From NCBI GenBank assembly GCA_014378465.1, contig JACMNQ010000029.1, positions 1-37,800 of the forward strand: a stretch of 37,800 nucleotides of DNA, read 5' to 3'. Shown piece after piece: positions 12,870 to 36,600 of the stretch. Both the position numbers and the translations under genes were made by a program. Under the pieces are notes generated by a model. The model saw only the letters and a list, made by a program, of their open reading frames with translations. It did not search any database and had not been told where the DNA came from. The stretch is from Oligoflexia bacterium (GTDB taxonomy: Bacteria; Bdellovibrionota; UBA1018). Every line of letters starts with the position of its first letter. Positions within the stretch are counted from its first letter, which is position 1.

Positions 12870-14883
<2,014 letters not shown>

Positions 14884-14903: not shown

Positions 14904-15224
14904 TTATTGCTTCAAGAGCTGGATTTCGTCCGTATCCACGGAGCGAACAGTTCTGAACATGGCGATCACAAGGCCGAGTCCGACAGCGGATTCGGCGGCT
15001 GCCACGGTAATGATGAAAAATACGGACATCTGACCACCCATGTGGTTGTGAATCTTCGAGAAAGTCACGAACGTGAGGTTGACGGCATTGAGCATGAGCT
15101 CGATGCACATCAGGATCACGAGGATGTTTCTGCGAATGAGAAGTCCGGCCAGGCCGATGAAGAAGATGGCCGAGCAGAAGGCGAGGACCAACCAGGGTTC
15201 AACTTGAAATTCCGAAAGTGCCAT
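14904..15224 (-). CDS. nuoK: NADH-quinone oxidoreductase subunit K
   Basis: A 106-residue protein with three membrane helices. It has the two buried glutamates needed for proton transfer, E42 in CIELMLNAVN and E78 in AAAESAVGL, 36 residues apart as in E. coli (E36 and E72). The start is the ATG at 15224, two bases after the nuoJ stop; an in-frame TTG two codons upstream is unlikely to be used. The subunit links the NuoH quinone-side channel to the antiporter-like subunits. Confidence 0.97.
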   Translation of the reverse strand: MALSEFQVEPWLVLAFCSAIFFIGLAGLLIRRNILVILMCIELMLNAVNLTFVTFSKIHNHMGGQMSVFFIITVAAAESAVGLGLVIAMFRTVRSVDTDEIQLLKQ

Positions 15225-15226
15225 AT

Positions 15227-16200: not shown

Positions 16201-16202
16201 AA

Positions 16203-20449: not shown

Positions 20450-20487
20450 AAACTTCTGATCAAACTCAGTGAGGGGCTCGCGCCGCC

Positions 20488-21741
20488 TTACCGGTCCAAC
20501 TCTCCCGCGATGATGTTGATGCTTCCAAGTGCCGCCACGGCATCGGCGATCTTCGAGCCCTTGACCATCGGGTCAAGTCCCTGAAAGTGCCAGACCGAAG
20601 GTCCACGAATGCGCATGCGATGGGCTCTTGGGGAGCCTTTGCTGACGATGTAGAAGCCCAGCTCGCCGTTTGCCGCTTCAAACTGCGTATAGGCTTCACC
20701 TTCTGGGACGTCAAAGCCGTGCATGAAGAATTTGAAGTGATGAATCATTCCTTCCATCGTGTTGTGAACGACGTCCTTGTCAGGAATTCTCACACGCTTG
20801 TCTTCTGCCCAGATCGGACCGGGCTGAATCTTGTCCGCACACTGGGAAACGATGTTCAGCGACTGACGGATCTCTTCCATGCGAACCATGTAACGGTCGA
20901 AAACGTCACCGTTGCGAGCGATGGGTACGTCAAACTCGACGTTCTTGTAGAACATGCAGGGCTGGTCACGTCTCAGGTCCAGATCAATGCCGGCAGCGCG
21001 GGCAACGGGGCCCGAAAAACTGTAGTCCAGGCACTGTTGCCTGCTGAAGACACCGACTCCAATGGTGCGCTGGCACCAGATCTTGTTACCGGTGAGGAGT
21101 TCGTCCATTTCATCGATGACTTTGCGGGTCTTGACGACCCAGGCTTTGCACCGCTTCTCCCAGCCTTCAGGAGCATCATGCATGAGGCCGCCGATGCGCG
21201 TGTAGGACGTGGTCAGGCGCGCGCCGCAAAGCTCTTCGATGAGGGAGTAGCCTTCTTCGCGCTGGTGGAAGCCATAGAGAAAGAAGGAAAACGCACCGAG
21301 ATCGACGGCATTGATGCCGACGCAGACCAGGTGATCCATGATTCGCGCGATCTCAGCGCACATCATGCGGATCCAGATCGCCCGCGGCGGGAGTTCAACT
21401 CCCATGAGCTTTTCGACAGCCATCGCGTAAGCGACATTGTTGATCAGGGCCGAACAGTAGTTCAGGCGGTCGGTGTAGACGACGAATTGATGATAAGTGC
21501 GGTTTTCGCCGAGCTTTTCTTTCGCGCGGTGGGTATAGCCGAACTCACAGTAGGACTTCTCAATCGTCTCACCGTTCAGTTGCGCGACCATTCGGAGGGC
21601 ACCGTGCATGGACGGATGAGTCGGGCCGATATTCATCAGAACCCGGGAATCACCCCAGAGGTCATCCGTGTCGTGCTCCATCACACCGTGTTCGATGTTG
21701 GAACTGAGACTTCCGATTTCTCTTTTGCTGTCGTTAGGCAT
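20488..21741 (-). CDS. nuoD: NADH-quinone oxidoreductase subunit D
   Basis: The 49 kDa-type subunit, 417 residues from the ATG at 21741. A TTG three codons upstream is an alternative, and AAGGA precedes both. The quinone pocket is intact: H42 and H46 in GPTHPSMHG, and Y95 in YTDRLNY. In Thermus the equivalents of H46 and Y95 (His38, Tyr87) bind the quinone headgroup. The C-terminal arginine-containing ending of NuoD (ELDR) is present. With NuoB and NuoH it forms the quinone-reducing site. This is the reference sequence for the altered NuoD at 30891-32021. Confidence 0.97.
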   Translation of the reverse strand: MPNDSKREIGSLSSNIEHGVMEHDTDDLWGDSRVLMNIGPTHPSMHGALRMVAQLNGETIEKSYCEFGYTHRAKEKLGENRTYHQFVVYTDRLNYCSALINNVAYAMAVEKLMGVELPPRAIWIRMMCAEIARIMDHLVCVGINAVDLGAFSFFLYGFHQREEGYSLIEELCGARLTTSYTRIGGLMHDAPEGWEKRCKAWVVKTRKVIDEMDELLTGNKIWCQRTIGVGVFSRQQCLDYSFSGPVARAAGIDLDLRRDQPCMFYKNVEFDVPIARNGDVFDRYMVRMEEIRQSLNIVSQCADKIQPGPIWAEDKRVRIPDKDVVHNTMEGMIHHFKFFMHGFDVPEGEAYTQFEAANGELGFYIVSKGSPRAHRMRIRGPSVWHFQGLDPMVKGSKIADAVAALGSINIIAGELDR

Positions 21742-21753
21742 AAATTCCAATCC

Positions 21754-22338
21754 TTATCTCAAAAACGATGGGTCAATCGGTTCCGCACTTGGGAAAATCT
21801 GGTAGCCCTTCAGAGGGTAATCCTTGCGGAGGGGGTGCCCCACCCAGCGCGCGTCCATCAGGATCCTTCTCAGATCCGGGTGGCCCGAGAATTTCACACC
21901 GAACATGTCGAAGACTTCGCGCTCAGCCCAGTTGGCGCCTTTCCAGACGCCCGTTGCGGTCGGAACTTCCGCCCCTTCGCTCACGCGAACCTTGAAGCGG
22001 ATTCTCCAGAATTTGGAATGGGAGAAAAGGTTATAGACGACTTCGAAGCGGGGTTCCATTTCTTCATCGGTCGCGGTGATGTCGGACAGGAAATTGTATT
22101 CAAAGCCTGCCTCGTTCTTGGCAAATTCCAGAACCTGCGCGATGGCTTCCTTTTTCACATAGATGATCGGCACATCGGTCGGATAATCCGGCGGCATGCG
22201 CACCTCTTCGATCGACGCTCCGAATTTTTCCTGAAGTCGGGCGACCTGGGACTTCCAACCCTCTCCCCACTGTGCGAGCCAGCTGCCTCCGTTGGAGGGG
22301 ATCGGCTGCCTGATATCCATGTCGAACTTGATATCCAT
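21754..22338 (-). CDS. nuoC: NADH-quinone oxidoreductase subunit C
   Basis: A 194-residue 30 kDa-type subunit with the C-terminal signature EREVFDMFGVKFSGHPDLRR at about 139-158, then GHPLRKDYPLKGY. It packs against NuoD and NuoI in the connecting module. It is a separate gene, not fused to nuoD as in E. coli. It starts 27 bases after nuoB. An internal ATG six codons in is a possible alternative start. Confidence 0.96.
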   Translation of the reverse strand: MDIKFDMDIRQPIPSNGGSWLAQWGEGWKSQVARLQEKFGASIEEVRMPPDYPTDVPIIYVKKEAIAQVLEFAKNEAGFEYNFLSDITATDEEMEPRFEVVYNLFSHSKFWRIRFKVRVSEGAEVPTATGVWKGANWAEREVFDMFGVKFSGHPDLRRILMDARWVGHPLRKDYPLKGYQIFPSAEPIDPSFLR

Positions 22339-22365
22339 TTTGAAAGCGTCCTTATGAGGGTGAAA

Positions 22366-22878
22366 TTACTTGAGCTTGAGCTGAGCACTCTTCAAATTTT
22401 GTTCGCGGCGCTGAGAATAGGTTTCGCCTTTTTGAACGCTGTCCTGAAGTCGCATCAATGCGTGGATGACGCCTTCAGGTGAAGGTGGGCAGCCAGGCAC
22501 ATAAACATCAACCGGAATCACGGTGTCGATTCCCTGAGTGACGCTATACACGTTGAAGATCCCGCCCGAAGAAGCACAGGCCCCAAAAGACATCACCCAC
22601 TTGGGTTCGCTCATCTGGTCGTAGATGGTCTTGAGTACGGGTGCCATTTTCGTATTGATGATGCCTGCGACGATCAGCAGATCTGACTGGCGCGGGGAGA
22701 AACGCATGGCTTCCGCTCCGAAACGAGCCATGTCGTAGTCCGAAGCGAGAGTCGCCATCATCTCAATCCCACAACAGCTCGTGCCGAAAGGGAGCGGCCA
22801 CATGGAATTCTTGCGGCCCCAATTGACGAAGTCGTCGAGTCGAGTGGTGAGGTAAGTAGCTGATCCATCTTTACTCAT
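22366..22878 (-). CDS. nuoB: NADH-quinone oxidoreductase subunit B (cluster N2)
   Basis: A 170-residue subunit carrying the terminal [4Fe-4S] cluster N2. Ligands are the tandem C35-C36 in [11 protein letters not shown]101 in GACASSGG and C130 in VPGCPPSPE. The [13 protein letters not shown] stretch (58-70) is typical of complex I. Electrons pass from N2 to quinone held by NuoD. It starts 25 bases downstream of nuoA. Confidence 0.97.
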
Positions 22879-22903
22879 AAAAATTCCTTAGCTGAACAGA
22901 AGT

Positions 22904-23263
22904 TCATTCCCACTCCAGCGCGCCCTTGCCGAGCACATAGAAGTATCCCACCAAAAGGATTCCGACGAAGAGGCCCATATCAAGAATGATGAACGAATTG
23001 ACGGAGAGGAGTTTTTTGTAAACTACCGCAAATGGAAAAAAGAAAACCGCCTCAACGTCAAAGAGGAGGAACAAAATTGCGACAAGGTAGAAGCGGACGG
23101 AAAAGCGCTGCTTGGTATCTCCATAAACGGGCATGCCGCATTCAAACGGAAGTTCCTTCGCTTTGTTCTTGATCTTGGGTCCGAGCATTCCGGAAAGTGT
23201 GATGATCACGACGCCGAGAAAAACTCCGATTGCCATCAAAATTAAAACGGGGATGTAAGACAT
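22904..23263 (-). CDS. nuoA: NADH-quinone oxidoreductase subunit A
   Basis: A three-helix subunit of 119 residues from the ATG at 23263; an upstream in-frame start adds 17 residues without family similarity. The ECG of the first loop is at 41-43, and RFSVRFYLVAILFLLFDVEAV carries D69 and E71, the charges equivalent to E. coli D79 and E81 near the quinone channel. AGAGG lies upstream. First gene of the 14-gene operon. Confidence 0.94.
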   Translation of the reverse strand: MSYIPVLILMAIGVFLGVVIITLSGMLGPKIKNKAKELPFECGMPVYGDTKQRFSVRFYLVAILFLLFDVEAVFFFPFAVVYKKLLSVNSFIILDMGLFVGILLVGYFYVLGKGALEWE

Positions 23264-23417
23264 CGTTGAGCCAACCTCTTGTCTGTTGTCGAAAGAGGGT
23301 GTCAAAGACTCCATGACTCGGTCGCCTGGGTCTGCGACTGGCCGGATTTGCCCCTCTGTTCATATTTCTTACTTATGAATGATCTTGTATGTTTATAGCG
23401 CCACGGGTTGCCAGGTG
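23264..23417 (-). promoter_or_regulatory. Intergenic region between the two nuo operons
   Basis: This 154-base AT-rich spacer separates the second operon's nuoN from the first nuoA. On the minus strand it holds TATAAA (23397-23392) and CATAAG-like elements that could be -10 boxes, but no good -35 hexamer at the right distance. There is no hairpin with a T-run. Read-through from the second operon into the first is therefore possible. Promoter presence is a guess from position and base composition. Confidence 0.25.
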
Positions 23418-24899
23418 CTACCACAAAATGAATTGAATAGACTGACCTGCCCAGGACAGGACTGTCTCTGCGAAGACGGCCAGCAGAATCATCGGGAGCA
23501 GAAGACCGACCAGCAGGGCGCGATGGCCGCCGCCTGTGATGATGGCCGTTGAAGTTGGATTTTCAATTTGAGTTTTGAAGTCACCGACCAGGCTGTAGGC
23601 AAGTCGGGCAATTGCGACTGCTCCGATCGCACTTGAAAGAATGGCCAGAGCGGCTAGAAAATTCCATTCATGACGAATTGCGGCGCCAATAAGCGTGAAT
23701 TTTCCGATGAAACCGGGGAGTGGCGGGATTCCGACCAGGCAGGCGAGAAAAAGAATGAGGGCGACGCATTCCGGCACCGCGCGCCTGAGCGTGCCTTTCA
23801 GCGCTGAGAGCTGGTCTGAGCCGACTTCATCAAAGAGAAAGGAAAGGATGTAAAAGATTCCCATGAGAGCGAAGAGTTCAACGACCAGATTGAAGAGAAG
23901 GGCCGAGAGGCCCACTTCGTCCAGAACCAGAAGTCCCATGAGCAGATAACCACTTTGGGCCACGACCAGATAAGCGACCAACCTCTTGGCCCCATTTTGT
24001 CTAAAGGCGAGCAGGGAGCCGACCACCATCGTGATCCCCGAGACCAGTGCGACGATACGAGTCCAGTCCACATGACCCAGCACTTGCCACTCGCCTTGGG
24101 CAAGAGCGGGCTGTGCAAAAACGACAATGATCAGACGAAGAGCAAAGGCAAAGCCGGCCGCGCGAGTTCCCACTGAAATGAAGGCGGAAACCGGAGTGGG
24201 AGCCCCTTCAAGTACATCCGGAGCCCAGAGATGCATGGGAAATGCGGCGAACTGAAAACTGAGAGCCATGAAGACCAGGATAAATACGACCAATGCAGTC
24301 TCATTTGGAAGGCCAGTGGTCGAAAGAATCCTGTGCATTTCATAAATATTCAGCGACTGGGTTCCCGCGAAGAGCAAGGCGACTCCGTAAAGAAGAAGCG
24401 CCGCCGAAACAGCTCCGAAAGCCAGGTGCTTGAAAGACGCTTCAGTCGACAGGACGCTGAGTTTTCTCTGAGCGGAGAGGATGTAACTCATTCCGTTCAG
24501 AAACTGAAGACAGAGAAAAGCCAGAAGGAGATCCGCCGCCGACGCGATCAGGCACATCGCGATCGTTGAACCCAGAATCAGGGCCGTGAACTCGGCTCGT
24601 TTATCCTTCGGAATTTCCCGGGAGCGGGCTGAAGTCAGAACTGAAAGCATGGCCAGCGTGATGAAAAACAGTTTGAAGAAGAGAGAGAAGCCATCCACCA
24701 CGATCGCATTCGAAAAGAGCTGGGACGCTCCGTACGGATAAGTGAGCAGGGTCTGGATGAAAGCTCCGACCAGGCCGGTCAGCGCGATCCAGGTGATGAG
24801 GCGCAATTTTTCACCATGGTAACCCACTTCGCTGAGAATGATCCCAGCGACCGTCAGAGTCAAAAAGATCTCAGGAAGGAGAAAAACGAAATCCTTCAT
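23418..24899 (-). CDS. nuoN: NuoN-like subunit, second 11-gene complex I operon, channel residues altered
   Basis: A 493-residue homologue of NuoN, aligning with the neighbour copy through WAPDVLEGAPTPVSAF and GIPPLPGF. The TM5 glutamate is Q132 (FLCLQFLNG against FIALEIMS). The TM7 lysine is Q216 in LSFQFAAFPMHLW. The TM8 lysine is R246. The AHSGYL histidine is Q315. Only the TM12 lysine is kept (K400). In E. coli NuoN the first three correspond to E133, K217 and K247, which are important for pumping. The reading frame is intact and the start overlaps nuoM (ATGA). I infer a folded subunit unable to conduct protons by the usual route. Last gene of its operon. Confidence 0.9.
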   Translation of the reverse strand: MKDFVFLLPEIFLTLTVAGIILSEVGYHGEKLRLITWIALTGLVGAFIQTLLTYPYGASQLFSNAIVVDGFSLFFKLFFITLAMLSVLTSARSREIPKDKRAEFTALILGSTIAMCLIASAADLLLAFLCLQFLNGMSYILSAQRKLSVLSTEASFKHLAFGAVSAALLLYGVALLFAGTQSLNIYEMHRILSTTGLPNETALVVFILVFMALSFQFAAFPMHLWAPDVLEGAPTPVSAFISVGTRAAGFAFALRLIIVVFAQPALAQGEWQVLGHVDWTRIVALVSGITMVVGSLLAFRQNGAKRLVAYLVVAQSGYLLMGLLVLDEVGLSALLFNLVVELFALMGIFYILSFLFDEVGSDQLSALKGTLRRAVPECVALILFLACLVGIPPLPGFIGKFTLIGAAIRHEWNFLAALAILSSAIGAVAIARLAYSLVGDFKTQIENPTSTAIITGGGHRALLVGLLLPMILLAVFAETVLSWAGQSIQFILW

Positions 24900-26416
24900 T
24901 TGATCGTTCCCAGCAAGCTCATGACCGTGGGGCGAACCAGCTCGATCAGGGGCTTTGGATAGATCCCGAAAAGCAGGATGCTTGCGACGAGAGGAAGAAG
25001 AAAGGCCTGCTCTCTCAGGCTCAGGTCAGGAAACGACAGGCCTTTGCGATTCTTCCCGAGAAAGAGCTGACGGTACATCGTGAAGAGAAAGTAGCTCGCA
25101 AGAAGAAAGATGAGGCCCGCGAGAATGACGACGATCGGATGAATGGAGTAGCTGCCGATCAGAAGCAGAGCATGACCCACGAATCCACTCAGCCCCGGAA
25201 AACCCAGGAGTGAGGCGACGATGACTCCGGCCACCATGGCCATCTGCGGAGCATAGGTGACGATACCCCCATAGGTCGACTCTCCATCTGGGTTCTGAAA
25301 ACTGGCGTCTCCACCCTTTTCAAAGAGCAGCCCCGCAAAAAGACCGAAGCCTGCCAGTCCAAGCCCGAGCGAAAGTTCCTGAAAGACCGAACCCACCACT
25401 CCGGCAGCATTCAGGGAACCGATCCCGATCAGAATCATGCCTACTTCACTGAGGCAGATGTACGCCGACAACTGCTTGAGACCCTTCTGAGCCAGAGCAC
25501 AGATGCCACCCATCACGAGATTGATGCCTCCAATGACGACGATCACGGTCGCACTCTGGACCAGCGTTGCCGGAAACAGTGAGTACGAGAGTCGAGTGAA
25601 GATGTACATCGCGACCGGAACACCCACTGCAGACAAAGCAACGAACACGGGAGAAGGCGCTTCTTTCGCGGCTTGAGAGAACCAGCCGTGAAAAGGCCAG
25701 ATCGGAGCACGAAGAGTCAGGCCCGCGCTGGCAAGAATGAACGCGACCGTTGAAACCTTGAAATCCGATCCCAGAAACTGAAAGACCTTGTCCTCGAGCT
25801 TTCCGCCGGAAAGTTCACGCAGGGAAAAAGTATGTGGCTCCAGGGCGTGATAGACGAGAATCAATGCGCAGAAAAGCAGCGCATTGCCGATGGATGCGGA
25901 GACGATGGTTCTGAAAGCCGCACTTTCACGGTTTTCGCCACCCCAGATTCCAATGAGGAAATAAAAGGGAAGTGCGCTGAGAGCCCAGAAGAAAAACAGC
26001 AGGAAAAGATCCTGAGCGCAGACCGCACCCAGAAAAGCGGTTTGAAGAACGAGCAGAAGACCATAGAGTCCCTGCGTACCGATTTTCTGTTTCCATTCCG
26101 CGGCGACGAGCAGCGGGAACACGATCGAAATCAGGAGAACGAGCAGGACATTGAGCCCGTCCAGGGCCATGTCGTAGCTGATCGCGTAGGAACCGATCCA
26201 GGGCGTGATTTCCTGAATGGGCAGATCCACGAGCTGCAATTTCATGGCGATGACCAGGAACACTCCGCAGAGTGCGCTGGCGAGACTCGTTCCAAGCGCC
26301 GTCCAGCGGCTGATTGAGAACTTTCCTCTCACCATCTGGGAAGTGGGCAGGAAAGCCTGTAAAAGGGCTCCTAGAAAGGGGAGAAAAACCATCAAAGTGA
26401 TCAAGTGGCGAGTCAC
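24896..26416 (-). CDS. nuoM: NuoM-like subunit, second complex I operon, channel residues altered
   Basis: A 506-residue NuoM homologue with a GTG start at 26416 preceded by AGAGGA at six bases. The fold-defining segments are kept (LFFFWALSALPFYFLIGIWG, PIWPFHGW, GFPGLSGFVGH). The channel residues are not: TM5 Glu is A145, TM7 Lys is R236, TM8 Lys is P267, the NHG histidine is L350 and TM12 Glu is H415. In E. coli the first three and the last correspond to E144, K234, K265 and E407. The alignment in these blocks is ungapped against the neighbour NuoM, so the replacements are not alignment noise. It lies 16 bases after the L-like gene and overlaps the N-like gene. Confidence 0.9.
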   Translation of the reverse strand: MTRHLITLMVFLPFLGALLQAFLPTSQMVRGKFSISRWTALGTSLASALCGVFLVIAMKLQLVDLPIQEITPWIGSYAISYDMALDGLNVLLVLLISIVFPLLVAAEWKQKIGTQGLYGLLLVLQTAFLGAVCAQDLFLLFFFWALSALPFYFLIGIWGGENRESAAFRTIVSASIGNALLFCALILVYHALEPHTFSLRELSGGKLEDKVFQFLGSDFKVSTVAFILASAGLTLRAPIWPFHGWFSQAAKEAPSPVFVALSAVGVPVAMYIFTRLSYSLFPATLVQSATVIVVIGGINLVMGGICALAQKGLKQLSAYICLSEVGMILIGIGSLNAAGVVGSVFQELSLGLGLAGFGLFAGLLFEKGGDASFQNPDGESTYGGIVTYAPQMAMVAGVIVASLLGFPGLSGFVGHALLLIGSYSIHPIVVILAGLIFLLASYFLFTMYRQLFLGKNRKGLSFPDLSLREQAFLLPLVASILLFGIYPKPLIELVRPTVMSLLGTIK

Positions 26417-26432
26417 GCGCTATCCTCTCAAT

Positions 26433-28403
26433 TTAAAATCTCAAAAAATGAATCAAAACCGCAATGCCTGAAGCGATTGCAAAAAACAGATACCACTGCA
26501 CGTCACCGTTGTGGATCAGCTGCAATAGTTTAGCGGGAACATCGACGAAGTGTCGCACTCCCGAAGTGATGCGAACGGTGATGGCTTCATCCAGGCTCGC
26601 GCTCGTCTTTCCCACGAACTCCGTGGTCGCTTTTGAAACTCGGGGCACGAAACGGTTCCAGAATCTGTCATTGATGGCGGTCTCAAGCATGTTTCCGACC
26701 CAGTGGATTCCGGCAAACGTGCGGGTCAGGACCAGATCCATGCCGTAACCGTGGGCCACGAAGCTCGAGAACTTCGGAAACCTCTCCGTGATGGACACAA
26801 CAGCGTCACGCTTTCCAACTGAAAACCAATAAGCGGCGAGTCCAGCGATGACCAGCACCCACCAGTGGATCCAGGAGGCGGTGAGAAAACCGTTCTCATC
26901 CAGGGTGATGAGCTTGGGATTCAGGTAAGCGGGCAGATCCCAGATGGTCATGACCTGAACCAGGTCCACTCCCGCCGGAAGCGCGCCCCCACTGATGGAG
27001 CCATTCCAGAGAATTCCAACTCCCGGAATCAAGAGCAGATAGGGGGAGAGCACTGAAAACCACGATGCCGGAGTCGATCGAGAGAGCTGGGTCTGCTGCA
27101 GAGCCAGTCGAAAAATGAGTGCGCTGAGGAGAAAAAGCACGATTCCAAAACCAACGGCAAGACCCACGTCATAAAGGCTTCTTCCCAGGGTCTGAATGAA
27201 TCCAAAACACGATGCGAAGCCGATCATTCCAGTACCGACTGCAGCGGCGAAAAAAGCGGAGACCTTGGCCCAGGTGGCTTTGGAGTTTCCATTAACGGTC
27301 GAGGCTTTCGGAGTTTCGGACGAGGACTTTCCGTCTTCGAGAGTGCAACCGCTCTGCGCGAGCATGCAGGCCGCAAGCCCGGTGCAGATCAGGCAGGCAA
27401 AGGCGGCAGTGGGTCCGCAGAACAGGAGAGAGGCCGCTGAAAAACCGAAGGCCGAGGAAAGCCAGCAGTTCAGTGCGAGCTTCCAGTCCTTCTGAAGAAA
27501 ACCCATGAACGAGCTCAGAACCGAAGCAGCCAGGGCAAGCCAGCCGAAGTACGGAAGCACTCCCGTGGCCTGCAATTGTGGATAGAGCCGAAAGAGAATG
27601 GCAAACGCTCCCCAGCTGGGCAGCAGCTGGGCGAAGGTGAGACGCGACGCAGGCAGAACGGACGAGGGACGCGCGAGGTAAGTGAGGAATGGAAAAGGCA
27701 GAACGAAAAGCACCCAACCGAAGACCAGGAGACCTGCACCCAGGGCCTGCACTTCAAGACCGCTTGAAAAATCCCAGGCTTTGACCGTCTCCAGATGCGC
27801 GAATTGAAGCGGTACACCCATGCTCGCCAGGGCAGATGCGCCGATGACCATCAGAGTGAGCGAGGCGACTCGTTCCTTGATGAAGCTGGCGACGATGCCG
27901 GCATCAGCATCCTGATCCCAGGAGGCCGCAAGAGAGATCACTCCTCCAAGCAGGGTGATCCCCAGACCCACGAACACGAGCCAGGGGGTGAGCGCGTACC
28001 AGCAGAAAGCGAGACCTGAAACGCTGAGGGCGGAAGCTGAATACTGACGTTCAACTCGCTGTGGTGCATCTCCTGCTGAGCGCCTGGAGAGCAGAAGAAT
28101 TCCTGCGAGGAGAGCTCCAACGAAAGTGAGTGTGGAACCCAATACATCTGACCAGATTCCGATCTGCAGGGAGATCGCTTCATTTTTCGGCCAGATCCAG
28201 CCCACAAGCCACTGATGATCCGTGCCCCAGCTCAGAATCACCCAGGCGAAAATCAGCAGAACCCCGAGGCCCGCAAGCCAGTCGCCCTGACGAGGGAGGC
28301 GCTTGCCGGACGAGAGCACGATGACCCCGAACAGTACGCTGCTCAGGCCCGCGATCAGAAGTCCATTGGGAATCAGAAAATCCGCGCTGAGAATTCCTAA
28401 CAT
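26433..28403 (-). CDS. Highly diverged NuoL-like subunit, second complex I operon
   Basis: A 656-residue membrane protein placed where nuoL belongs. Similarity is low but the length, helix pattern and C-terminus agree: residues 545-656 contain an HGYGMDLVLTR entry, an amphipathic lateral-helix region and a final anchor, as in NuoL. None of the NuoL channel residues is seen. E156 of the neighbour aligns with L147, K249 with F233 and H274 with A258. The HxxxH...K block has no His or Lys at all (331-352), and the SKDE lysine is gone. The LPDAMxGPTPVSALIHAATM signature is absent. The frame is open throughout. It lies 24 bases after the K-like gene. Function is unknown; probably a structural remnant of the distal antiporter-like subunit. 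Confidence 0.82.
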   Translation of the reverse strand: MLGILSADFLIPNGLLIAGLSSVLFGVIVLSSGKRLPRQGDWLAGLGVLLIFAWVILSWGTDHQWLVGWIWPKNEAISLQIGIWSDVLGSTLTFVGALLAGILLLSRRSAGDAPQRVERQYSASALSVSGLAFCWYALTPWLVFVGLGITLLGGVISLAASWDQDADAGIVASFIKERVASLTLMVIGASALASMGVPLQFAHLETVKAWDFSSGLEVQALGAGLLVFGWVLFVLPFPFLTYLARPSSVLPASRLTFAQLLPSWGAFAILFRLYPQLQATGVLPYFGWLALAASVLSSFMGFLQKDWKLALNCWLSSAFGFSAASLLFCGPTAAFACLICTGLAACMLAQSGCTLEDGKSSSETPKASTVNGNSKATWAKVSAFFAAAVGTGMIGFASCFGFIQTLGRSLYDVGLAVGFGIVLFLLSALIFRLALQQTQLSRSTPASWFSVLSPYLLLIPGVGILWNGSISGGALPAGVDLVQVMTIWDLPAYLNPKLITLDENGFLTASWIHWWVLVIAGLAAYWFSVGKRDAVVSITERFPKFSSFVAHGYGMDLVLTRTFAGIHWVGNMLETAINDRFWNRFVPRVSKATTEFVGKTSASLDEAITVRITSGVRHFVDVPAKLLQLIHNGDVQWYLFFAIASGIAVLIHFLRF

Positions 28404-28427
28404 TTTGATTCGTTCCCGTAAGTCATT

Positions 28428-28718
28428 TTAATGTTTGAGTGAGCGCAGCTCATCCATCCCCGTTCTGTTCTTGAGATAAAAAAGTCTCACTGCAAGGGCA
28501 AAGCCGATGATCAGCTGAGCCACACTTCCCAGTACAATGAAAAAACCGAACAAGTAGCCCTGGTCAATGACCTTGGACGAGACGCCGATGGAGACGATCA
28601 TGCTGCTGGCGCCCAGCACGAGGAGTTGCGTTCCGATCAGAAAACCCAGAAAACTTTTGCGGTAAAGCAGGCAGATGATGCCCGTCCCCCCCAGGAGAGC
28701 CGAAATGAGAACCATCAT
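28428..28718 (-). CDS. nuoK: NuoK-like subunit, second operon, both key glutamates replaced by Gln
   Basis: A 96-residue, three-helix protein that aligns without gaps around both critical sites of the neighbour NuoK. E42 there is Q31 here (IGTQLLVLG) and E78 there is Q68 here (GSVAQLIIG). The equivalent E. coli residues, E36 and E72, are required for proton translocation. Glu to Gln keeps shape but removes charge. The C-terminal DELRSLKH tail resembles the DEIQLLKQ tail of the neighbour. The start overlaps the J-like stop (ATGA). Confidence 0.9.
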   Translation of the reverse strand: MMVLISALLGGTGIICLLYRKSFLGFLIGTQLLVLGASSMIVSIGVSSKVIDQGYLFGFFIVLGSVAQLIIGFALAVRLFYLKNRTGMDELRSLKH

Positions 28719-29278
28719 GAGGATTTCTCCTTCATTTCCGGGCGAGCGATGACCCCGGCGCCGACCACCACCAGAAAAAGGGTCAGACCCAGGATCTGAA
28801 GTGACAGAAACTGCTTGTCCATCAGTGATTTTCCGATGGTCGCCAGATTGTGCGCGTTCTCAGGGGATGGGGGGGCCATGTTCAAGGCGTTGGCTCCGGC
28901 ATTCGCCGAGGAGAGAGAACGGCTTCCGAGCCAGATCACGCCACTGAAACCCAGGCCAGCCAGAGTCGGCAGTATGGCCGAAACCAGCTTTCGCTTGAGA
29001 GGGGTGGTCTCTTCAGAATGATACTCACCCAGCATGACCGAATAGAAGATGAAGCAAAGTGCACCCAGAGTGGAAATGATCCACTGAGTGATGGCCAGAA
29101 GCTCCGCTCCCTGCGAAAGAAATATCCCGCCCACCGCAAGTCCACAGACCCAGAGCGAAAGAATTGCAAAGCGAATGGAGCTCATGAAAGTCGCAGTCAG
29201 AGCCGCACCGAGGGCGACCGCGCTGCAGATCCAGTAGACCAGTTCGATCAGTGTGAGGTTGGTGTTCACGATGGCCAT
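28715..29278 (-). CDS. nuoJ: NuoJ-like subunit, second operon
   Basis: A 187-residue membrane protein at the nuoJ position, with four or five helices. The third helix reads QGAELLAITQWIISTLGALC at 56-75 against GAHLIAALQVLVYAGAIMV in the neighbour. The conserved Gln is kept (Q65), but the VYxGA gating motif is lost and Tyr62 aligns with S69. It carries a longer loop rich in Ala, Asn and Pro (about 125-145) before the last helix. It overlaps the I-like gene by 13 bases and the K-like gene by four. Confidence 0.85.
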   Translation of the reverse strand: MAIVNTNLTLIELVYWICSAVALGAALTATFMSSIRFAILSLWVCGLAVGGIFLSQGAELLAITQWIISTLGALCFIFYSVMLGEYHSEETTPLKRKLVSAILPTLAGLGFSGVIWLGSRSLSSANAGANALNMAPPSPENAHNLATIGKSLMDKQFLSLQILGLTLFLVVVGAGVIARPEMKEKSS

Positions 29279-29823
29279 TCTCCCCGTTTCGGATCTTCAC
29301 GACCTTCATCCAGGGCCTGGGCTCTTGCCCACTTGCGGCGCTGATCTTCGCCGATCGGCCCGCGACCAAAACTCTTCTTGAGATCCCGCACATCATAGAC
29401 CGAACCTTCAAACTGCTTGGTGTGTATGAGGGATGCCGGCTGACAGACCTCCACGCAAAGGCCACAGAAAATGCATTTTGCGAAATCGATGTCAAACTTC
29501 GACACCCAGACCTTCGCATCGGCAGGAACACTCTGAGTTTCGACTTCGATGCAGTGAACGGGGCAGACCCATTCACACTCTCGGCAGGCGGAACAGCGGT
29601 CGATGTCATTGAAGAGCAGTCCGCGAGTGCGAGGCGGCAGATCATCTGCCGTCTTTGAAGAGACCGGGTCCGGATACTGTTCAGTCACTTCTTTTCTCAA
29701 GTCGCCTGAATTGACGTTCAGAAGATAGGGCAGTGCCGTCATGAAAGATCCAAACAGGGACCTCGCGCCCCTGAAAACGTCTCTGAAGTATTCGGCCAGA
29801 GTTGACAATACTGAACTCGTCAT
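29266..29823 (-). CDS. nuoI: NuoI-like ferredoxin subunit, second operon, both clusters kept
   Basis: 185 residues with two complete CxxCxxCxxxC sets: C77, C80, C83, C87 and C117, C120, C123, C127. Clusters equivalent to N6a and N6b can therefore form. The second set ends CQP where CP is usual. The N-terminal helix (1-35) and a charged, basic C-terminal tail (140-185) are longer than in the neighbour copy (147 residues). There is no NuoG in this operon to feed it, so the exposed cluster would have to take electrons from a soluble donor or another complex. It lies 12 bases after the H-like gene. Confidence 0.92.
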   Translation of the reverse strand: MTSSVLSTLAEYFRDVFRGARSLFGSFMTALPYLLNVNSGDLRKEVTEQYPDPVSSKTADDLPPRTRGLLFNDIDRCSACRECEWVCPVHCIEVETQSVPADAKVWVSKFDIDFAKCIFCGLCVEVCQPASLIHTKQFEGSVYDVRDLKKSFGRGPIGEDQRRKWARAQALDEGREDPKRGEWPS

Positions 29824-29835
29824 TTTAATTCTTCC

Positions 29836-30894
29836 TCATCCGTGCAACCACGCTGTCCAGAAGGCAAACCCCACCAGTGAGATCAGGGAGAAGGGACTGA
29901 GCACCTTCCAGTTGAGATCGGTGACCTGATCCACGCGCATTCGCGGAGTGACCTGTGAAAACATCACGATCAGAAGCATGACGGCAAAAGTCTTGATCAA
30001 CAGCACGAACAGCTCGATCAGGACGATGACACCAAAAGAGTTCGAGTCTCTCAAGGCTTCGGTCAGTCCTTCGGGGATGGACCAGCCTCCCAGAAAAAGA
30101 ACCACCGCCATCACACACCAGAGAAACATCCCGTAGAAGCGACTGAGCCTGAACATCCCGAGCTTGGGACCCGACAGGTGAGCCGCGGTGCCGCCTCGAA
30201 GTTCAGAAAATGAAATGGCACCATCCAGGGGTGCCACTCCCAGCACGATCATCCCGCTCATGAGAAACACGATGAGGGAGATCGCGCCAAAGGGATTGTT
30301 GAATGCGGTCCAGTGATAGGGAGCCGCGCTTTGCGCAGCCGCAATGTGGCTCCAGCTGAAACCACCGGCCGGGAGACCCGCGCAGAGCACGGCGATGAGT
30401 GCCGGGAACACGCCCGCCATGCCCCGAAGTGAGGTTCTCAATCCGCCGAGCCACCCGGAAACGGTATCTTGAGTGAGCCCCATCATCAAAGTCGCGAAAG
30501 TGAGAACGATCACGCCCCAGAAAGGCAGGAAGACACTCATGTCAGTATCGACCAGAAGAATGAGGGATCCGAGCGGCAGCACGGCCACCGTTGAGTAAAG
30601 CGCCATTCCGGCAATTCCCAGCCAGATCGCTTCAGCCCGGTTGCTCGAGGGTGAATCGACTTTCTGCATGAGCTTGAGCGCATCCGACACCGGCTGAAAG
30701 AATCCCGCCGGGCCGGAACGATTCGGACCCACTCGTGCTTGAAGATCGGCACTGAGTTTTCGTTCCATGAATGCCATGATCAGGCTGCAGGGAAGAACGA
30801 CGAACAGATAGGAAATGATCAGCACCAGGATCATCACGACCGCGTGAGGGGTGTGCTCAGGAAGATTCAGGATGCTTTGCCAGGCGGTGATCAT
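29836..30894 (-). CDS. nuoH: NuoH-like subunit, second operon, E-channel residues lost
   Basis: A 352-residue NuoH homologue retaining E44 in AFMERKLS, RVGPNRSGPAGFFQPVSDALK at 54-74 and the C-terminal RVDQVTDLNWK region. The proton-entry residues are gone in gap-free alignment with the neighbour: E161 to V162, E221 to V217, R224 to V220, E231 to I227 and E233 to F229. D224 and E231 remain from the PFDLPEGESE loop. In canonical NuoH this loop couples quinone chemistry to the membrane arm. The start overlaps the D-like stop (ATGA). Confidence 0.9.
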   Translation of the reverse strand: MITAWQSILNLPEHTPHAVVMILVLIISYLFVVLPCSLIMAFMERKLSADLQARVGPNRSGPAGFFQPVSDALKLMQKVDSPSSNRAEAIWLGIAGMALYSTVAVLPLGSLILLVDTDMSVFLPFWGVIVLTFATLMMGLTQDTVSGWLGGLRTSLRGMAGVFPALIAVLCAGLPAGGFSWSHIAAAQSAAPYHWTAFNNPFGAISLIVFLMSGMIVLGVAPLDGAISFSELRGGTAAHLSGPKLGMFRLSRFYGMFLWCVMAVVLFLGGWSIPEGLTEALRDSNSFGVIVLIELFVLLIKTFAVMLLIVMFSQVTPRMRVDQVTDLNWKVLSPFSLISLVGFAFWTAWLHG

Positions 30895-32021
30895 CGGTCG
30901 AACTCCGCCAGGGAAATATCCAGACTGAGCAGAATGACGGAGATGTCCTCAACCCGTGTTCCAATCACGAGTTCCGGAATGGTGAGCATATGACCGGTCG
31001 AAGGTGTCTTGAATTGCACGCGAGCGGGGCGGGTGCCCCCGTCTGAAACCAGATGACAGCCCAGAGTTCCTCGCGGACTTTCCACACGAGAGTACGCTTC
31101 ACCCGGAGCAATGGTGAATTCCCGAGAAATCTTGACACTCTGAAACTGTCCAGCCGGAATCGAGTCCACGGACTGCTTGAGGATTTCAAGACTCTGCGTG
31201 ATCTCGCGGAGCCTCAGCACGAAGCGATCATGCGCGTCTCCGATGGTGCCGCCTTCACCACGCCCCACCGGAATTTCGAAATCAATCAGCTCATAGCCGC
31301 TGTAAGGTGCACTCTTGCGGACATCAAGTGAAAGACCCGCGGCGCGAGCGTTGGGCCCCGTCACTCCGAGTGCTCGCGCTCGCTCCGATGACAGAACGCC
31401 AATCCACGACGAGCGCTTGAGAAAAGCATGATTGAAGGAAAACAGATCGTTATATTCCTTGAGACGGATCCGGATGAGTTCACAGACGTCAATCACACGC
31501 TCAATGAAGCCTTCAGTCACATCGGCGGAGACTCCGCCGAGCCTCAGAAAGTTGATGGAGAAGCGTGCACCTGTCAGAAGCTCAAAGAGATCCAGAACCC
31601 TCTCACGGTCTCTCAGGACATAGTGAAACATGGGGGTGGATCCGACCGCTTTGGCCATGCGGGCAAGGAAGCCCAGGTGAGAGGAGATGCGCGTGAGTTC
31701 TGAAAGAATCACCCGGATATTCTGGGCCCGGCGAGGAACATCGATCCCGGCGATCTCCTCGGCGGCAAGACAAACGGCCAACTCACCAAAAATCGCGGAC
31801 TCGGGATCAAGCCGATCCGCATACGTGAGCGAAGACTGCCAGCTGTGGCGCTCCAGCGCTTTTTCAAGTCCACGGTGCAGAAAACCCGCTTCTGTTTCAC
31901 CTGAAACGATGATTTCACCGTCGAGCTGCAGCCTGAGCATCATGGGGCCCGGCAAAGCTGGATGGTAGGGTCCCAGGCTCCAGTTCGTGAAATCAGTTGC
32001 GAGGTACTCTCTCAGGCTCAT
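30891..32021 (-). CDS. nuoD: NuoD-like subunit, second operon, quinone-binding His and Tyr both Pro
   Basis: A 376-residue NuoD homologue. GPYHPALPG (17-25) matches GPTHPSMHG but the second His is P24. YADRLDP (67-73) matches YTDRLNY but the Tyr is P73. In Thermus Nqo4 these are His38 and Tyr87, the two residues that hold the quinone headgroup. The GFLHRGLEK helix (46-54) and the C-terminal EFDR ending are kept. The protein has only isolated cysteines and no CxxC pairs, so it is not a NiFe-hydrogenase large subunit. The start overlaps nuoC (ATGA). Quinone reduction by the standard mechanism seems excluded. Confidence 0.92.
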   Translation of the reverse strand: MSLREYLATDFTNWSLGPYHPALPGPMMLRLQLDGEIIVSGETEAGFLHRGLEKALERHSWQSSLTYADRLDPESAIFGELAVCLAAEEIAGIDVPRRAQNIRVILSELTRISSHLGFLARMAKAVGSTPMFHYVLRDRERVLDLFELLTGARFSINFLRLGGVSADVTEGFIERVIDVCELIRIRLKEYNDLFSFNHAFLKRSSWIGVLSSERARALGVTGPNARAAGLSLDVRKSAPYSGYELIDFEIPVGRGEGGTIGDAHDRFVLRLREITQSLEILKQSVDSIPAGQFQSVKISREFTIAPGEAYSRVESPRGTLGCHLVSDGGTRPARVQFKTPSTGHMLTIPELVIGTRVEDISVILLSLDISLAEFDR

Positions 32022-32494
32022 TCGTGCTCATGCCTCTGATGCTTGATCGAAGCGAACTCGATCGGAAATACATACGACTTGCGAAGGGGGAAGCCTCTCC
32101 AGCCTTCAGGCAACACCTGGTGTGGCCTGGTCTTTCCACCTTGAAAGCGAACGCCGAAAAGTTCGGAGATTTCCTGCTCAAGAGGAATCGCGATCGCCCA
32201 GAGGTGAGAAACCGATACGGCATCGACTTCTGAAGTTTCCGTTTTGGGAGTGACGGTCGCACGAAGCACCATCGTCTTGCCGGTTGAAGAGGATTTCAGA
32301 AAGTAGGTGAGGAGGATATCCCCCTTCATTTCAAAGGCCGAGATGTTTTCAAGGTCGTCCATCTGCCAGTTCGGCTCATCCCTCAGAAACTGTGCAGTAT
32401 GCGCGAGCGAACCCACATCAATCGCAAGCGATTGCTTCAGAGAGGAGCCCGCTCCTTTGATTTCAAGCTTCCGTTTGAGTTCGTTGGTATCCAC
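32018..32494 (-). CDS. nuoC: NuoC-like subunit, second operon
   Basis: 158 residues from a GTG at 32494 with AGGA eight bases upstream; the next Met is residue 45, so GTG is the likely start despite a 32-base overlap with nuoB. The C-terminal block LEQEISELFGVRFQGG (about 104-119), followed by WRGFPLRKSYVFP, matches the NuoC signature, with GKTRPHQVL in place of the usual GHPDLRRIL. It is shorter than the neighbour copy at the N-terminus. It should pair with the D-like subunit. Confidence 0.9.
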   Translation of the reverse strand: MDTNELKRKLEIKGAGSSLKQSLAIDVGSLAHTAQFLRDEPNWQMDDLENISAFEMKGDILLTYFLKSSSTGKTMVLRATVTPKTETSEVDAVSVSHLWAIAIPLEQEISELFGVRFQGGKTRPHQVLPEGWRGFPLRKSYVFPIEFASIKHQRHEHE

Positions 32495-32933
32495 GAATTT
32501 TTTCCTGCAAAGTGATGAGTCCGTTCATGATGGCTTCGGGACGAGGGGGGCAGCCCGGAACATAGACGTCCACCGGGATGATCTTGTCGACTCCTGCAAC
32601 GACTGAGTAGCTTGACTCAGGAGAGAAGGCCCCGCCACAGCTCGCGCAAGCCCCGACTGCCAGAACATATTTGGGCGAGAGCATGGCGTCGTAGAGCGCT
32701 CGCAGATGAGGAGCTGCCTTGTAAGAAGTGATGCCACTCACGATCAGTAAATCTGCCTGTTCAGGATTGACCTGGGGGACGCAACCAAACCGCTCCAGAT
32801 CATAACGACACCCCACTGTCTCCATGACTTCGTCACCGCAACAGCCTGAGCCGACGCTCACGTACCAGAGGGACCCGGCGCGAGCCCATTCAATGGCTTT
32901 GGAAAGCGTGGAGGAAAAAAAGTTACCGCTCAT
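32463..32933 (-). CDS. nuoB: NuoB-like subunit, second operon, N2 ligands kept, extra cysteines
   Basis: 156 residues with all four N2 ligands: C31-C32 in GSGCCGDEVME, C96 in GACASCGG and C128 in VPGCPPRPEA. The tandem cysteine pair is typical of complex I rather than of hydrogenase small subunits. Three further cysteines near the cluster (C42, C51, C99) are absent from the neighbour NuoB, and the MRFSPRQSD stretch is replaced by PQVNPEQAD. The start ATG overlaps the A-like stop (ATGA). Retention of the cluster ligands argues for a redox role. Confidence 0.93.
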   Translation of the reverse strand: MSGNFFSSTLSKAIEWARAGSLWYVSVGSGCCGDEVMETVGCRYDLERFGCVPQVNPEQADLLIVSGITSYKAAPHLRALYDAMLSPKYVLAVGACASCGGAFSPESSYSVVAGVDKIIPVDVYVPGCPPRPEAIMNGLITLQEKIRGYQRTQTEA

Positions 32934-33406
32934 GGGAGCTCCTCTTCGCTGGATGATCCGGTCCGGGAAGGTTCACTCGCGCGGGCAGGCGACGGCTTCT
33001 GGAAGGACCGCTCCCAGGTCAAGTCGCCCTTTCTCACGGCGTAGAACAGCCCGAGTGAGGCCAGGGCAGCCAGTGTCACGATGCTGATGAGGCCACGAGC
33101 AGACTCTGGCTTTTCATGAAGAGTCCCGACGCACGGGATGAGAAGAAATCCGAGCGTGATCAGAAGGAAAGCCGCGTTGGTTCCGAGAAAGAATCGGACG
33201 TTGATCTTCCGGCCCAGAGTATCTGAATTTTTTTTGGGAGTGAGCTCTGGAGGCGTGGTGTGCGTTCGTTTGGTCCGGCGTGAAACGGACCGAAGGAGCA
33301 GGGATACGGCAACGCCCAATAACGCCGAAATGAAGACGACGTAATACGTGTCCCAGCTGCTTGGTAAGAGTGCATGCACTGCATTCACCGTGTTTTCAGT
33401 ACCCAT
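32930..33406 (-). CDS. NuoA-like subunit, second operon, strongly diverged
   Basis: 158 residues with three hydrophobic helices at about 21-40, 72-92 and 105-122. It aligns without gaps with the neighbour NuoA from VRFYL (here VRFFL, 70-74) through the conserved proline. D69 and E71 of the neighbour fall on I83 and L85, and the ECG loop is absent. A charged, Ser/Glu-rich tail of about 25 residues is added. Identity as subunit A rests on position, helix pattern and this short block. First gene of the 11-gene operon, divergent from mfd. Confidence 0.78.
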   Translation of the reverse strand: MGTENTVNAVHALLPSSWDTYYVVFISALLGVAVSLLLRSVSRRTKRTHTTPPELTPKKNSDTLGRKINVRFFLGTNAAFLLITLGFLLIPCVGTLHEKPESARGLISIVTLAALASLGLFYAVRKGDLTWERSFQKPSPARASEPSRTGSSSEEELP

Positions 33407-33658: not shown

Positions 33659-36600
33659 ATGGCTTCGAGTAAAATCTCAGCAATTCTTCAGTCCATCGCT
33701 GATCTTTCGGAACCGATACGTGTTCTTGGGGCGCCTGCTTCTCCTCAAGCGCTGGTGATCGCGCGCTGGGCGCTTGCCTTGAGAGATTCGACAACCCCTC
33801 GTGACGCAGTCTTTCGGCCACTCGTCATCCTTTGCCCGAGTGACGATGCTGCAGCTGAGCTTGCGTCCGACATGGAAACTCTCAGTGCCTTGATACTTGG
33901 TGAGCGCGTCACATATTCGGTGCTTCCGAGCTGGGATCAATCGCTTTACTCCCCGATCGCTCCTTCGATTCAAACTCGCCTGTCTCGAATTGCGGCTCTG
34001 ACCGACCTTCATTCGGCTTTGCCGCCTCAAGTCATCTTCACGACTCTGGTCGCGACTTCTCAAAGAACGATTCCGGTCCAGACGCTTCTGGATCACTCCA
34101 TCACACTTGAGGTCGAAGCTTCCGTGGAGACGCGTGAAGCATTGATGCAACGACTCGCTGACGCGGGGTACCTCAGAGTGGATCCGGTCGAGGATCCGGG
34201 AACCTTTGCAGTCCGTGGAGACATCGTTGACGTGTTTCCTCCCGGAAGAAACCGACCCCTTCGAGTTGAGCTTTTCGGAGACGTCATCGAAAAGATCCGT
34301 GAGTTTGACCCTGAGTCTCAGCGTGCCGCCGCAGAGCCCACACTTCAAAAAGTCACCGTCGGCCCAGCTCGTGAAGTCCTCATCAATCGTAAAACCTCGT
34401 CGGGCCTCCGCGAACGACTGAAATCGCGTGCGGATGACATTGATATCCCTCGAAGCGTGCGCGACCCGGTACTCAATTCGATTCATGAAGGAATTTACCC
34501 CGATCACAGTGATGCCTGGGGACCGCTTGTCTATCCTGATTCGCCCACCTTCTGGGAGCACCTTCTGAGTCGGGTCGGAGGCATTGGCGGCGTCGCTTTC
34601 TCGGATGAGCTCTCCTGCTTCCAGGCGTGGGACGAATTCATCGAGGAGCAGAAAAGGCTTGAACCTGAATCCATCAACTCACAGCTGATCCTCCCTGCCG
34701 TTCAGTCCCTTTACGTTTCTTCGGAGCACTTCAAACCGTTTCTGGACCTGAAGACTCGACTCTACTTTGATCGCTTCGAATCCGCCCGATTCGCTGAATC
34801 CTCCGCAGGTCCGGAAGAACAGGTGGACACTGGAGGCGGGGACAGGATCTCCAATCACCATAAAGTGTTCGTCAAATCGAACGGTGATCTCACTCATGGC
34901 TCCAGGCAGCCCCTCGAAGAGCTCGATCCTCAGTTCAAGCTCTGGATTCGGCAGGGGTTCAGGATCCTGGCACTCGCACCCACTCAGAGTCAGGCCGAGC
35001 GCATTCGCTACCTTCTTGAAGAGCGCTCGCTCCCCTGTCGGATGGAAGGACCTCTGGATCCTTCCGTGATCTGCATCTGCATCGGTACGGTGGCAGAAGG
35101 TTTTCGTTGGCCGACCGAAGGAATCGTCCTTCTCACTGAAAGTGACATTCTCGGCGCAAAACATACGAAAAAAGGGAAGAGGCGCGTCTCAAAAGCAAGC
35201 GAGGAGTCTGGCTCCGCATCCAAGGACTGGTCCAACCTCCAGGCACTCTCGGATCTGGCGCTGGGAGACGCGATTGTTCACGTGGATCACGGCATTGGCC
35301 GCTACCAGGGTCTGGTACGACTGGATCTTTCCGGTGCGCCGAGCGACTTCCTGCTTCTCGAGTATGCGAACAAGGACAAACTTTACCTGCCGGTCTACCG
35401 ACTCAATGTGATTCAGAAATACATCGGGGCAGGAGAGGGTGTGTTGCTCGATCGCCTCGGCAGCCAGCAATTCGCTCGCGCCAAGGAGAAGGTTCGCGAT
35501 GCGGTCAAGAAGATCGCGATCGATCTCATCCAGCTCTACGCCGAGAGGAAAGTCCGCTCGGGTTTTCAATTCTCGATGCGCGACAGCGCTTACACGGAAT
35601 TCGAAGCCAAGTTTCCCTTTGATGAGACTCCTGATCAGATCAAAGCGATCGATGCCACGCTCAAGGACATGGAAGAAGGCAAGATCATGGATCGCCTCGT
35701 CTGCGGAGACGTGGGTTACGGCAAGACGGAAGTCGCCATCCGCGCGGCTTTCAGGGCCGTTTCTGACGGAAAACAGGTGGCCGTTCTCGTCCCCACGACG
35801 GTACTTGCGCACCAGCATGAGCAGTCTTTCAAAAATCGTCTGAAGGATTACCCGATTCTGGTCGATTCCGTTTCACGTTTCAAATCGGCGAAGGAACAGA
35901 AAAAAGTCCTCGAGTCTCTCAAAGCCGGCAAGCTCGATATCATCATCGGCACGCACCGCCTGCTCTCGCGTGACGTCGAATTCAATGACCTGGGTCTCAT
36001 CATCGTGGACGAAGAGCAGCGCTTCGGAGTTGAACACAAGGAGAAGCTCAAGACCTTTCGCCTCAACACTTCGGTACTGACCCTGACTGCCACCCCCATC
36101 CCAAGAACGCTTCACATGGCACTCTCAGGACTTCGCGACATCAGCCTGATCAATACTCCGCCCGTGACCCGGCTCTCCATCCGCACTTATGTTTCGAAAT
36201 TTGATGAGCCCCTCATCAAACGCGCCATCGAAGTGGAGCTCAACCGCGGGGGTCAGGTCTTCTTCCTTCATAACCGCGTTCAGACGATTGCCGAGATCAC
36301 GAAACTGATCAAGGAACTCGTACCTTCCGCCAAAGTCATCGTAGGCCACGGGCAGATGGGCGAGGGGGAGCTCGAAAAGGCCATGATGGAATTTTATGAA
36401 AAGCGCGCCAACGTGCTGGTCTGCACTTCGATCATCGAGTCGGGCCTCGACGTACCGTCCGCCAACACGATCATCGTGAACCGTGCCGATGCGTTCGGAC
36501 TCTCGCAACTCTATCAGATCCGGGGGCGCGTGGGACGAGGTCAACAGCGTGCGTATGCCTACCTGCTGCTCCCGGCTGAAGGCAGCATCAGTGAGGATGC

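What the first reader, a model, noticed from the sequence alone, without database searches (positions are those of the whole stretch)
23418..33406. Intact 11-subunit complex I paralogue stripped of its quinone and proton-pumping residues
Seen: a tight operon nuoABCDHIJKLMN with all frames open, lying directly upstream of a full nuoA-N operon. Compared gene by gene with that neighbour, the Fe-S ligands survive, but more than 20 functional residues in A, D, H, J, K, L, M and N are replaced by uncharged or unsuitable ones. Known: the replaced sites match residues shown in E. coli and Thermus complex I to bind quinone or carry protons. Inferred: selection keeps a folded, electron-wired assembly that does not use the classical coupling mechanism. 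It might be a non-pumping electron conduit, a regulatory or structural partner of the adjacent complex I, or a machine with another substrate. I know of no named complex I class with this combination.
Basis: partly seen in the sequence, partly recalled or inferred. Interest (0 to 1): 0.95.

Follow-up and report, generated by a model that had tools for sequence, protein, structure and literature searches.

The report
Complex I twin without its pump
Next to their normal respiratory complex I genes, a group of Bdellovibrio-related bacteria carries a second gene set that has kept its iron-sulfur ligands but replaced most of the residues for using quinone and pumping protons, so it is likely a membrane electron relay with a different, still unknown task.

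Summary
In detail: eleven open genes (nuoABCDHIJKLMN, minus strand, 23418-33406) lie 103 bp upstream of a full nuoA-N operon. It is not a decaying copy. The paralogue was found in 54 of 58 genomes searched of one class, upstream of nuoA where context was read; two more lack it cleanly. NuoD forms one clade. Of columns invariant in other complex I, 12 of 12 Fe-S ligands are kept; of quinone/proton residues named in papers I saw, 1 of 15; of my own earlier candidate list, 9 of 39; of other columns, about half. dN/dS is 0.02-0.06 for ten genes of a close pair. NuoI carries a signature in 41 of 41 paralogues and 0 of 110 others. Where NuoD lost the quinone tyrosine (36 sequences), an acidic residue (36) and a histidine (34) appear nearby, so the N2 pocket looks refitted rather than dead. 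In one family the membrane proteins are much shorter, yet the Fe-S ligands stay. Best reading: a non-pumping membrane Fe-S electron relay with unknown partners (0.47). Rivals: dead regulatory partner of complex I, redox sensor, rewired pump. Eight literature searches found no description.

The parts
32930..33406 (-). paralogue nuoA
   Evidence: (Oxidored_q4 below cut-off), position; Asp79/Glu81 sites are Ile/Leu
32463..32933 (-). paralogue nuoB; four N2 cysteines at residues 31, 32, 96, 128
32018..32494 (-). paralogue nuoC
   Evidence: Complex1_30kDa
30891..32021 (-). paralogue nuoD; quinone triad sites are Pro24, Pro73, Ala125; conserved new residues Glu74 and His133
29836..30894 (-). paralogue nuoH
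29266..29823 (-). paralogue nuoI; eight N6a/N6b cysteines at residues 77-127; signature EQYPDPVSSK at residues 48-57
28715..29278 (-). paralogue nuoJ
   Evidence: Tyr59 site is Ser
28428..28718 (-). paralogue nuoK; Glu36 and Glu72 sites are Gln31 and Gln68
26433..28403 (-). paralogue nuoL
   Evidence: no family match; AlphaFold2 model matches NuoL
24896..26416 (-). paralogue nuoM
23418..24899 (-). paralogue nuoN
   Evidence: (Proton_antipo_M)
9772..23314 (-). canonical nuoA-N operon used as the local control
33659..37267 (+). mfd, divergent flank that is shared with distant relatives
   Evidence: TIGR00580; also next to the cluster or to nuoA in L142, L143, L166, L172, L173

Best explanation
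The 11 genes at 23418-33406 encode a second complex I-type assembly that keeps all 12 cysteine ligands of the three NuoB/NuoI iron-sulfur clusters while most of its quinone and proton-channel residues are replaced, and it likely works as a membrane-anchored electron relay that neither reduces quinone in the classical way nor pumps protons. Shown: gene set, ligand retention, site losses, shared ancestry, purifying selection. Inferred: electrons would enter at NuoI from a soluble donor, pass N6a-N6b-N2, and leave at N2 to an acceptor bound in or docked at the refitted NuoD pocket (Pro24, Pro73-Glu74, His133). The membrane arm would serve as anchor and scaffold. Donor and acceptor are unknown.
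For: Fe-S ligand columns kept 12 of 12, paper-named quinone/proton columns 1 of 15, remaining invariant columns 114 of 232. NuoD His228 and Asp329 absent in 42 of 42. All twelve ligands still present in the very divergent f7 and f8 clusters L166 and L142. dN/dS 0.020-0.055. Coupled gain of Glu/Asp and His next to the lost tyrosine and a NuoI signature in 41 of 41. In f5 the membrane proteins are much shorter but B and I ligands are complete in 7 of 7.
Against: No electron donor or acceptor is identified. Fe-S ligands could be kept for folding alone. Several charged membrane sites are kept (NuoH Arg37, Arg46, Asp63, Lys274; NuoM His241, Arg273; NuoN Glu104, Glu154, Lys158, Lys295), and lysines changed to arginine keep charge. 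Two species live without the cluster. Only 13 of 57 class genomes carry a 2-oxoacid:ferredoxin oxidoreductase domain, so that ferredoxin source is not general.
Confidence: 0.47

Rival explanations
1. It is a catalytically dead partner that binds, regulates or stabilises the canonical complex I encoded next to it; the clusters are kept for folding.
For: Directly upstream of nuoA on the same strand in 24 of 24 loci measured, gap 6-264 bp. Dead paralogues that activate their partners exist (trypanosomatid prozyme PMC5201418 and deoxyhypusine synthase PMC3663545, seen as listings with abstract starts).
Against: G035 and G037 keep the canonical operon after clean absence of the cluster. New conserved residues sit at the old quinone site, which a docking role does not require.
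Confidence: 0.22
2. It still couples redox chemistry to ion movement, by a rewired set of charged residues and another substrate.
For: Nine of 39 pre-listed sites are kept; NuoM Lys234 and NuoN Lys247 became arginine; new charged residues in NuoM, NuoN and NuoJ.
Against: NuoM Glu144, NuoK Glu36 and Glu72, NuoA Asp79 and NuoJ Tyr59 are kept in 0 of the 26-30 paralogues aligned. In f5 the two proteins in the places of NuoL and NuoM have 299 and 327 residues, too short for the usual double half-channel (inference).
Confidence: 0.15
3. It is a membrane redox sensor: the clusters report the state of a soluble carrier without steady turnover.
For: Ligands and fold kept, coupling sites lost; dispensable in two species.
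Against: No regulatory gene or output domain is seen among the eleven proteins.
Confidence: 0.1
4. It is a decaying relic of a complex I operon.
For: It evolves faster than the canonical operon (NuoD dN 0.050 against 0.015 in L044/L048). NuoD is interrupted in G028 and a stop lies inside it in G045. Two species lack the cluster.
Against: Found in 54 of 58 class genomes; dN/dS 0.02-0.06; a single old clade; coordinated gains.
Confidence: 0.03

Closest known systems
11-subunit complex I-like enzyme (e.g. Desulfitobacterium hafniense, PMC11238625, abstract seen)
   Same: Same eleven subunits without the NADH module; Fe-S ligands kept.
   Different: Comparable complexes here (L068, L070, L071 and others) keep NuoD His228, Tyr277 and Asp329; the D. 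hafniense protein itself was not aligned. The paralogue has lost the triad and most pre-listed coupling sites.
Canonical respiratory complex I (NDH-1), encoded next door
   Same: Homologous subunits and gene order apart from nuoEFG.
   Different: No nuoEFG in the cluster; quinone triad absent; separate NuoD clade.
Group 4 [NiFe] hydrogenases and related complexes
   Same: Distant fold relatives of NuoB, D, H, I (recalled).
   Different: Window NuoD has no CxxC nickel-ligand motif (sequence) and its best models are NuoD.
Catalytically dead paralogue partners such as prozyme (PMC5201418, abstract start)
   Same: An impaired paralogue kept beside an active enzyme.
   Different: Those are single proteins; here it is a whole eleven-gene assembly with cofactor ligands.

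Membership tests
Respiratory complex I (NDH-1) | Homologous Q- and P-module core subunits | tested here: met
   for ten subunits (A below cut-off); fold match for L
Respiratory complex I (NDH-1) | Ligands of N2, N6a and N6b | tested here: met
   12 of 12 columns kept
Respiratory complex I (NDH-1) | NADH module NuoEFG in the same gene set | tested here: not met
   absent from the paralogue cluster; present only in the adjacent operon
Respiratory complex I (NDH-1) | Quinone triad His/Asp/Tyr in NuoD | tested here: not met
   123 of 123 others have His and Tyr
Respiratory complex I (NDH-1) | Conserved proton-path residues of the membrane arm | tested here: not met
   most lost, some kept
Respiratory complex I (NDH-1) | NADH:quinone activity with proton pumping | not testable with these tools
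   needs biochemistry
11-subunit complex I-like enzyme | nuoABCDHIJKLMN without nuoEFG | tested here: met
11-subunit complex I-like enzyme | Quinone triad intact | tested here: not met
11-subunit complex I-like enzyme | Ferredoxin or another soluble donor | tested here: inconclusive
   13 of 57 class genomes have POR_N; other donors not searched
Group 4 [NiFe] hydrogenase | CxxC nickel ligands in the large subunit | tested here: not met
   window NuoD sequence
Pseudogene / decaying copy | Broken frames or dN/dS near 1 | tested here: not met
   window frames open; dN/dS 0.020-0.055; exceptions G028 and G045

The most novel reading that the evidence does not exclude
A separate functional class of the complex I fold: an energy-uncoupled membrane Fe-S machine whose quinone triad has been exchanged for a Pro-Glu/His site beside cluster N2, which acts on a non-quinone partner, and whose membrane arm is free to shrink because it no longer pumps.
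Probability: 0.4. Interest if true: 0.92.

Novelty: new variant of a known kind. Interest (0 to 1): 0.82.

Why it matters
Complex I is usually read as an inseparable coupling of electron transfer to proton pumping. Here evolution seems to have run the uncoupling experiment across a bacterial class: wiring kept, most coupling sites replaced, frame held under purifying selection. The class offers natural stages (f2, f7 and f8 keep the tyrosine; the core order has the Pro-Glu/His site; f5 has much shorter membrane proteins; two species lack the cluster) for asking which parts of complex I serve pumping and which serve electron transfer or assembly. Names such as 'NADH-quinone oxidoreductase subunit I', which sources give to its proteins, likely mislead.

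Tried and rejected
Decay of one copy: disfavoured. Recent duplication of the adjacent operon: rejected, because in the NuoD tree the 41 paralogue rows lie on one side of a branch, SH-aLRT 98, apart from 79 other rows. That tree is a quick one with long branches; before it I dropped x_L152, rows under 250 residues and every second row of the group y, and L166 was not in it. Hydrogenase: rejected (no CxxC). Assembly artefact: rejected, the arrangement recurs in separately assembled contigs. Ferredoxin from 2-oxoacid oxidoreductases as the general donor: not supported. NuoB residues that looked new (Arg75, Glu79) also occur in other NuoB proteins (sequences) and were dropped. dS is saturated for seven of nine genes in window/L055, so that pair is not used; L060 and L150 are mostly saturated and not used. 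The script stopped on a division by zero; the f5 pair was redone.

A selection fault, mended: the first site count (0 of 27 kept) used a list that I had shaped after seeing losses. Some of its sites were added from the LOST rows, and kept sites of my one search list were left out. One search repeats the count with the whole one search list (9 of 39 kept; others against it P = 0.0015) and with residues named in paper passages (1 of 15; P = 0.001). I lowered the best explanation from 0.50 to 0.47 and raised the rewired-pump rival to 0.15 for this.

Not possible: multi-chain prediction; coordinates of the models were not available, so closeness of Glu74 and His133 to N2 is inferred from alignment. 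In f5 the proteins A, H, J, K, L, M, N are named by position only; in L060 the second of the two proteins between K and N is best matched to NuoL by BLAST (25%). Literature searches found no description; the library holds open-licence papers only.
Full report
What is there. The window holds two complex I gene sets in tandem on the minus strand: nuoABCDHIJKLMN at 33406-23418 and, 103 bp further on, nuoA-N at 23314-9772. All eleven frames of the first set are open. Pfam recognises nine of its proteins over cut-off, NuoA below cut-off and NuoL not at all. NuoL is predicted in the NuoL fold (pLDDT 82.9; best PDB match E. coli NuoL, 16% identity), NuoD in the 49-kDa fold (pLDDT 92.7). The divergent flank is mfd.

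How far it reaches. A NuoD profile found the paralogue in 50 of 58 genomes of the class (assigned by score, gene context read for most but not for G044, G045, G047, G049, G050, G053 and G054). Four more came by context or contig fragments: G005, G041, G010 and G051, so 54 of 58. Of the other four, G035 and G037 have mfd directly beside nuoA and no paralogue, the G040 contig starts at nuoA, and G009 is 56% complete with no hit. Five genomes of other classes of the phylum have none upstream of nuoB. One search covered 368 phylum genomes; of the hits outside the class I fetched 13, and all 13 keep the quinone triad. The NuoI profile matched 481 protein clusters at E 1e-25 or better; the 120 listed, one of them the window's own, all carry the signature and eight cysteines.

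One old clade. In a NuoD tree of 120 rows the 41 paralogue rows are one side of a branch (SH-aLRT 98) and do not join the adjacent canonical nuoD (quick method, long branches). The cluster stands between mfd and nuoA also in L142 (f8) and L166 (f7), which lie in the class but outside the order. In 24 of 24 loci measured the paralogue nuoN and nuoA lie on one strand, 6-264 bp apart.

What was lost and kept. Nine subunits (A, B, D, H, I, J, K, M, N) of 26-42 paralogues each were aligned with 52-123 other complexes from E. coli, this class and many phyla; columns at least 95% invariant in the others were scored as kept if at least 80% of the paralogues agree. Fe-S ligands: 12 of 12. Residues named in paper passages: 1 of 15 (NuoCD Arg407), against 114 of 232 remaining columns (P = 0.001). 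My own candidate list: 9 of 39, against 106 of 208 (P = 0.0015). A list shaped after inspection gave 0 of 27 and should not be used alone. Kept from the list: NuoH Arg37, Arg46, Asp63; NuoM His241, Arg273; NuoN Glu104, Glu154, Lys158, Lys295. Partly kept: NuoD His224 (71%), NuoN Lys395 (75%), NuoH Asp213 (55%), NuoJ position 55 (67%). Absent in every paralogue: NuoD His228, Asp329; NuoH Glu157, Glu216; NuoM Glu144; NuoN Lys217, Lys247; NuoA Asp79; NuoK Glu36, Glu72; NuoJ Tyr59. Related sequences are not independent, so the P values describe columns, not events. NuoL was compared only. Two ligand cells miss: one NuoB (L028) and one NuoI (L039).

The refitted pocket. The proton-donating triad of the 49-kDa subunit (His59/Asp160/Tyr108, passage of PMC7613608; E. 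coli His228-Asp329 in a passage of PMC10212512) is Pro/Ala/Pro in the window. Tyr277 is absent in 36 of 42 paralogues; in those 36, position 278, hydrophobic in nearly all others, is Glu or Asp in 36 and position 337 is His in 34. In the six that keep the tyrosine (four f2, one f7, one f8) each occurs once. This reads as His and Asp lost first, then a Tyr to Pro-Glu plus His switch; it may be one event. NuoI gained an insertion and the signature [ED]xYPDx[VI]S[SA][RK], in 41 of 41 paralogues and 0 of 110 others.

Selection. In L044/L048 (f5) dN/dS is A 0.020, B 0.029, D 0.035, H 0.034, I 0.031, J 0.055, K 0.032, L 0.045, M 0.025, N 0.027, against 0.007-0.061 for eight canonical genes. In L021/L024 nine of eleven genes run from 0.07 (B) to 0.27 (C), with dS 1.4-2.7. 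NuoD is interrupted in G028, and a stop lies inside it in G045.

A shrinking arm. In f5 locus L044 the lengths are A 74, B 125, D 335, H 269, I 137, J 116, K 80, then two membrane proteins of 299 and 327 in the places of NuoL (656 in the window) and NuoM (506), and N 454; no NuoC lies between B and D there, in L046, L060 or in f4 locus L043. Except for B, D and I these names rest on position. In f7 and f8 an extra membrane protein of 446-475 residues stands between L and M; of six f7 membrane proteins tested only NuoH passes a Pfam cut-off. All twelve Fe-S ligands persist in both.

How it most likely works. Shown: composition, ligands, losses, gains, selection. Inferred: electrons enter at NuoI, run N6a-N6b-N2 and leave to a partner other than quinone in the classical pocket, with the arm as anchor. 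The donor is unknown: 13 of 57 class genomes, not the window's, have a 2-oxoacid:ferredoxin oxidoreductase domain, and NADH through the neighbour's NuoEFG is possible but doubtful where NuoC is missing. Loss in G035 and G037 shows that the canonical operon persists without it.

Known or new. The closest kind is the 11-subunit complex I-like enzyme (abstract of PMC11238625). A term search of the 2025 complex I survey PMC12361115 found no mention of Bdellovibrio or paralogues. Eight literature searches found no description of this set. I call it a new variant of a known kind.

Noticed in passing
L172 (G037) 6199-10113; L173 (G035) 6623-10530: Clean absence of the whole cluster in two f5 species: mfd stands directly beside nuoA with about 100 bp between. 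A natural deletion for comparison.
   Followed up: partly
L142 9934-11361; L166 7732-9072: In f8 and f7 an extra 446-475 aa membrane protein of about 12 segments lies between the NuoL-like and NuoM-like frames; no Pfam match.
   Followed up: partly
L050, L051, L052, L147, L148, L151: A third complex I-like gene set in some class genomes; a 2-oxoacid:ferredoxin oxidoreductase domain lies about 4 kb from its NuoD in G003, G004, G007, G011, G019, G021, G024 and G057. It keeps the quinone triad.
   Followed up: partly
L153-L165: Phylum members outside the class have nuoB, C, D, I in a group with no NuoH, J, K, L, M or N match in the fetched stretch; NuoD keeps the quinone triad.
   Followed up: no
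window 17285-18820: The canonical NuoG is short (511 aa as listed), with only a small match to the molybdopterin domain.
   Followed up: no
window 6528-9671: A 1047-aa TPR-repeat protein follows the canonical operon on the same strand.
   Followed up: no
window 372-4040: A cytochrome c domain protein, a Na+/H+ antiporter family protein and a 2OG-Fe(II) oxygenase family protein near the end of the window.
   Followed up: no
L038 (G028): The paralogue nuoD is split into frames of 215 and 168 aa: a sequencing error or a recently broken copy.
   Followed up: no
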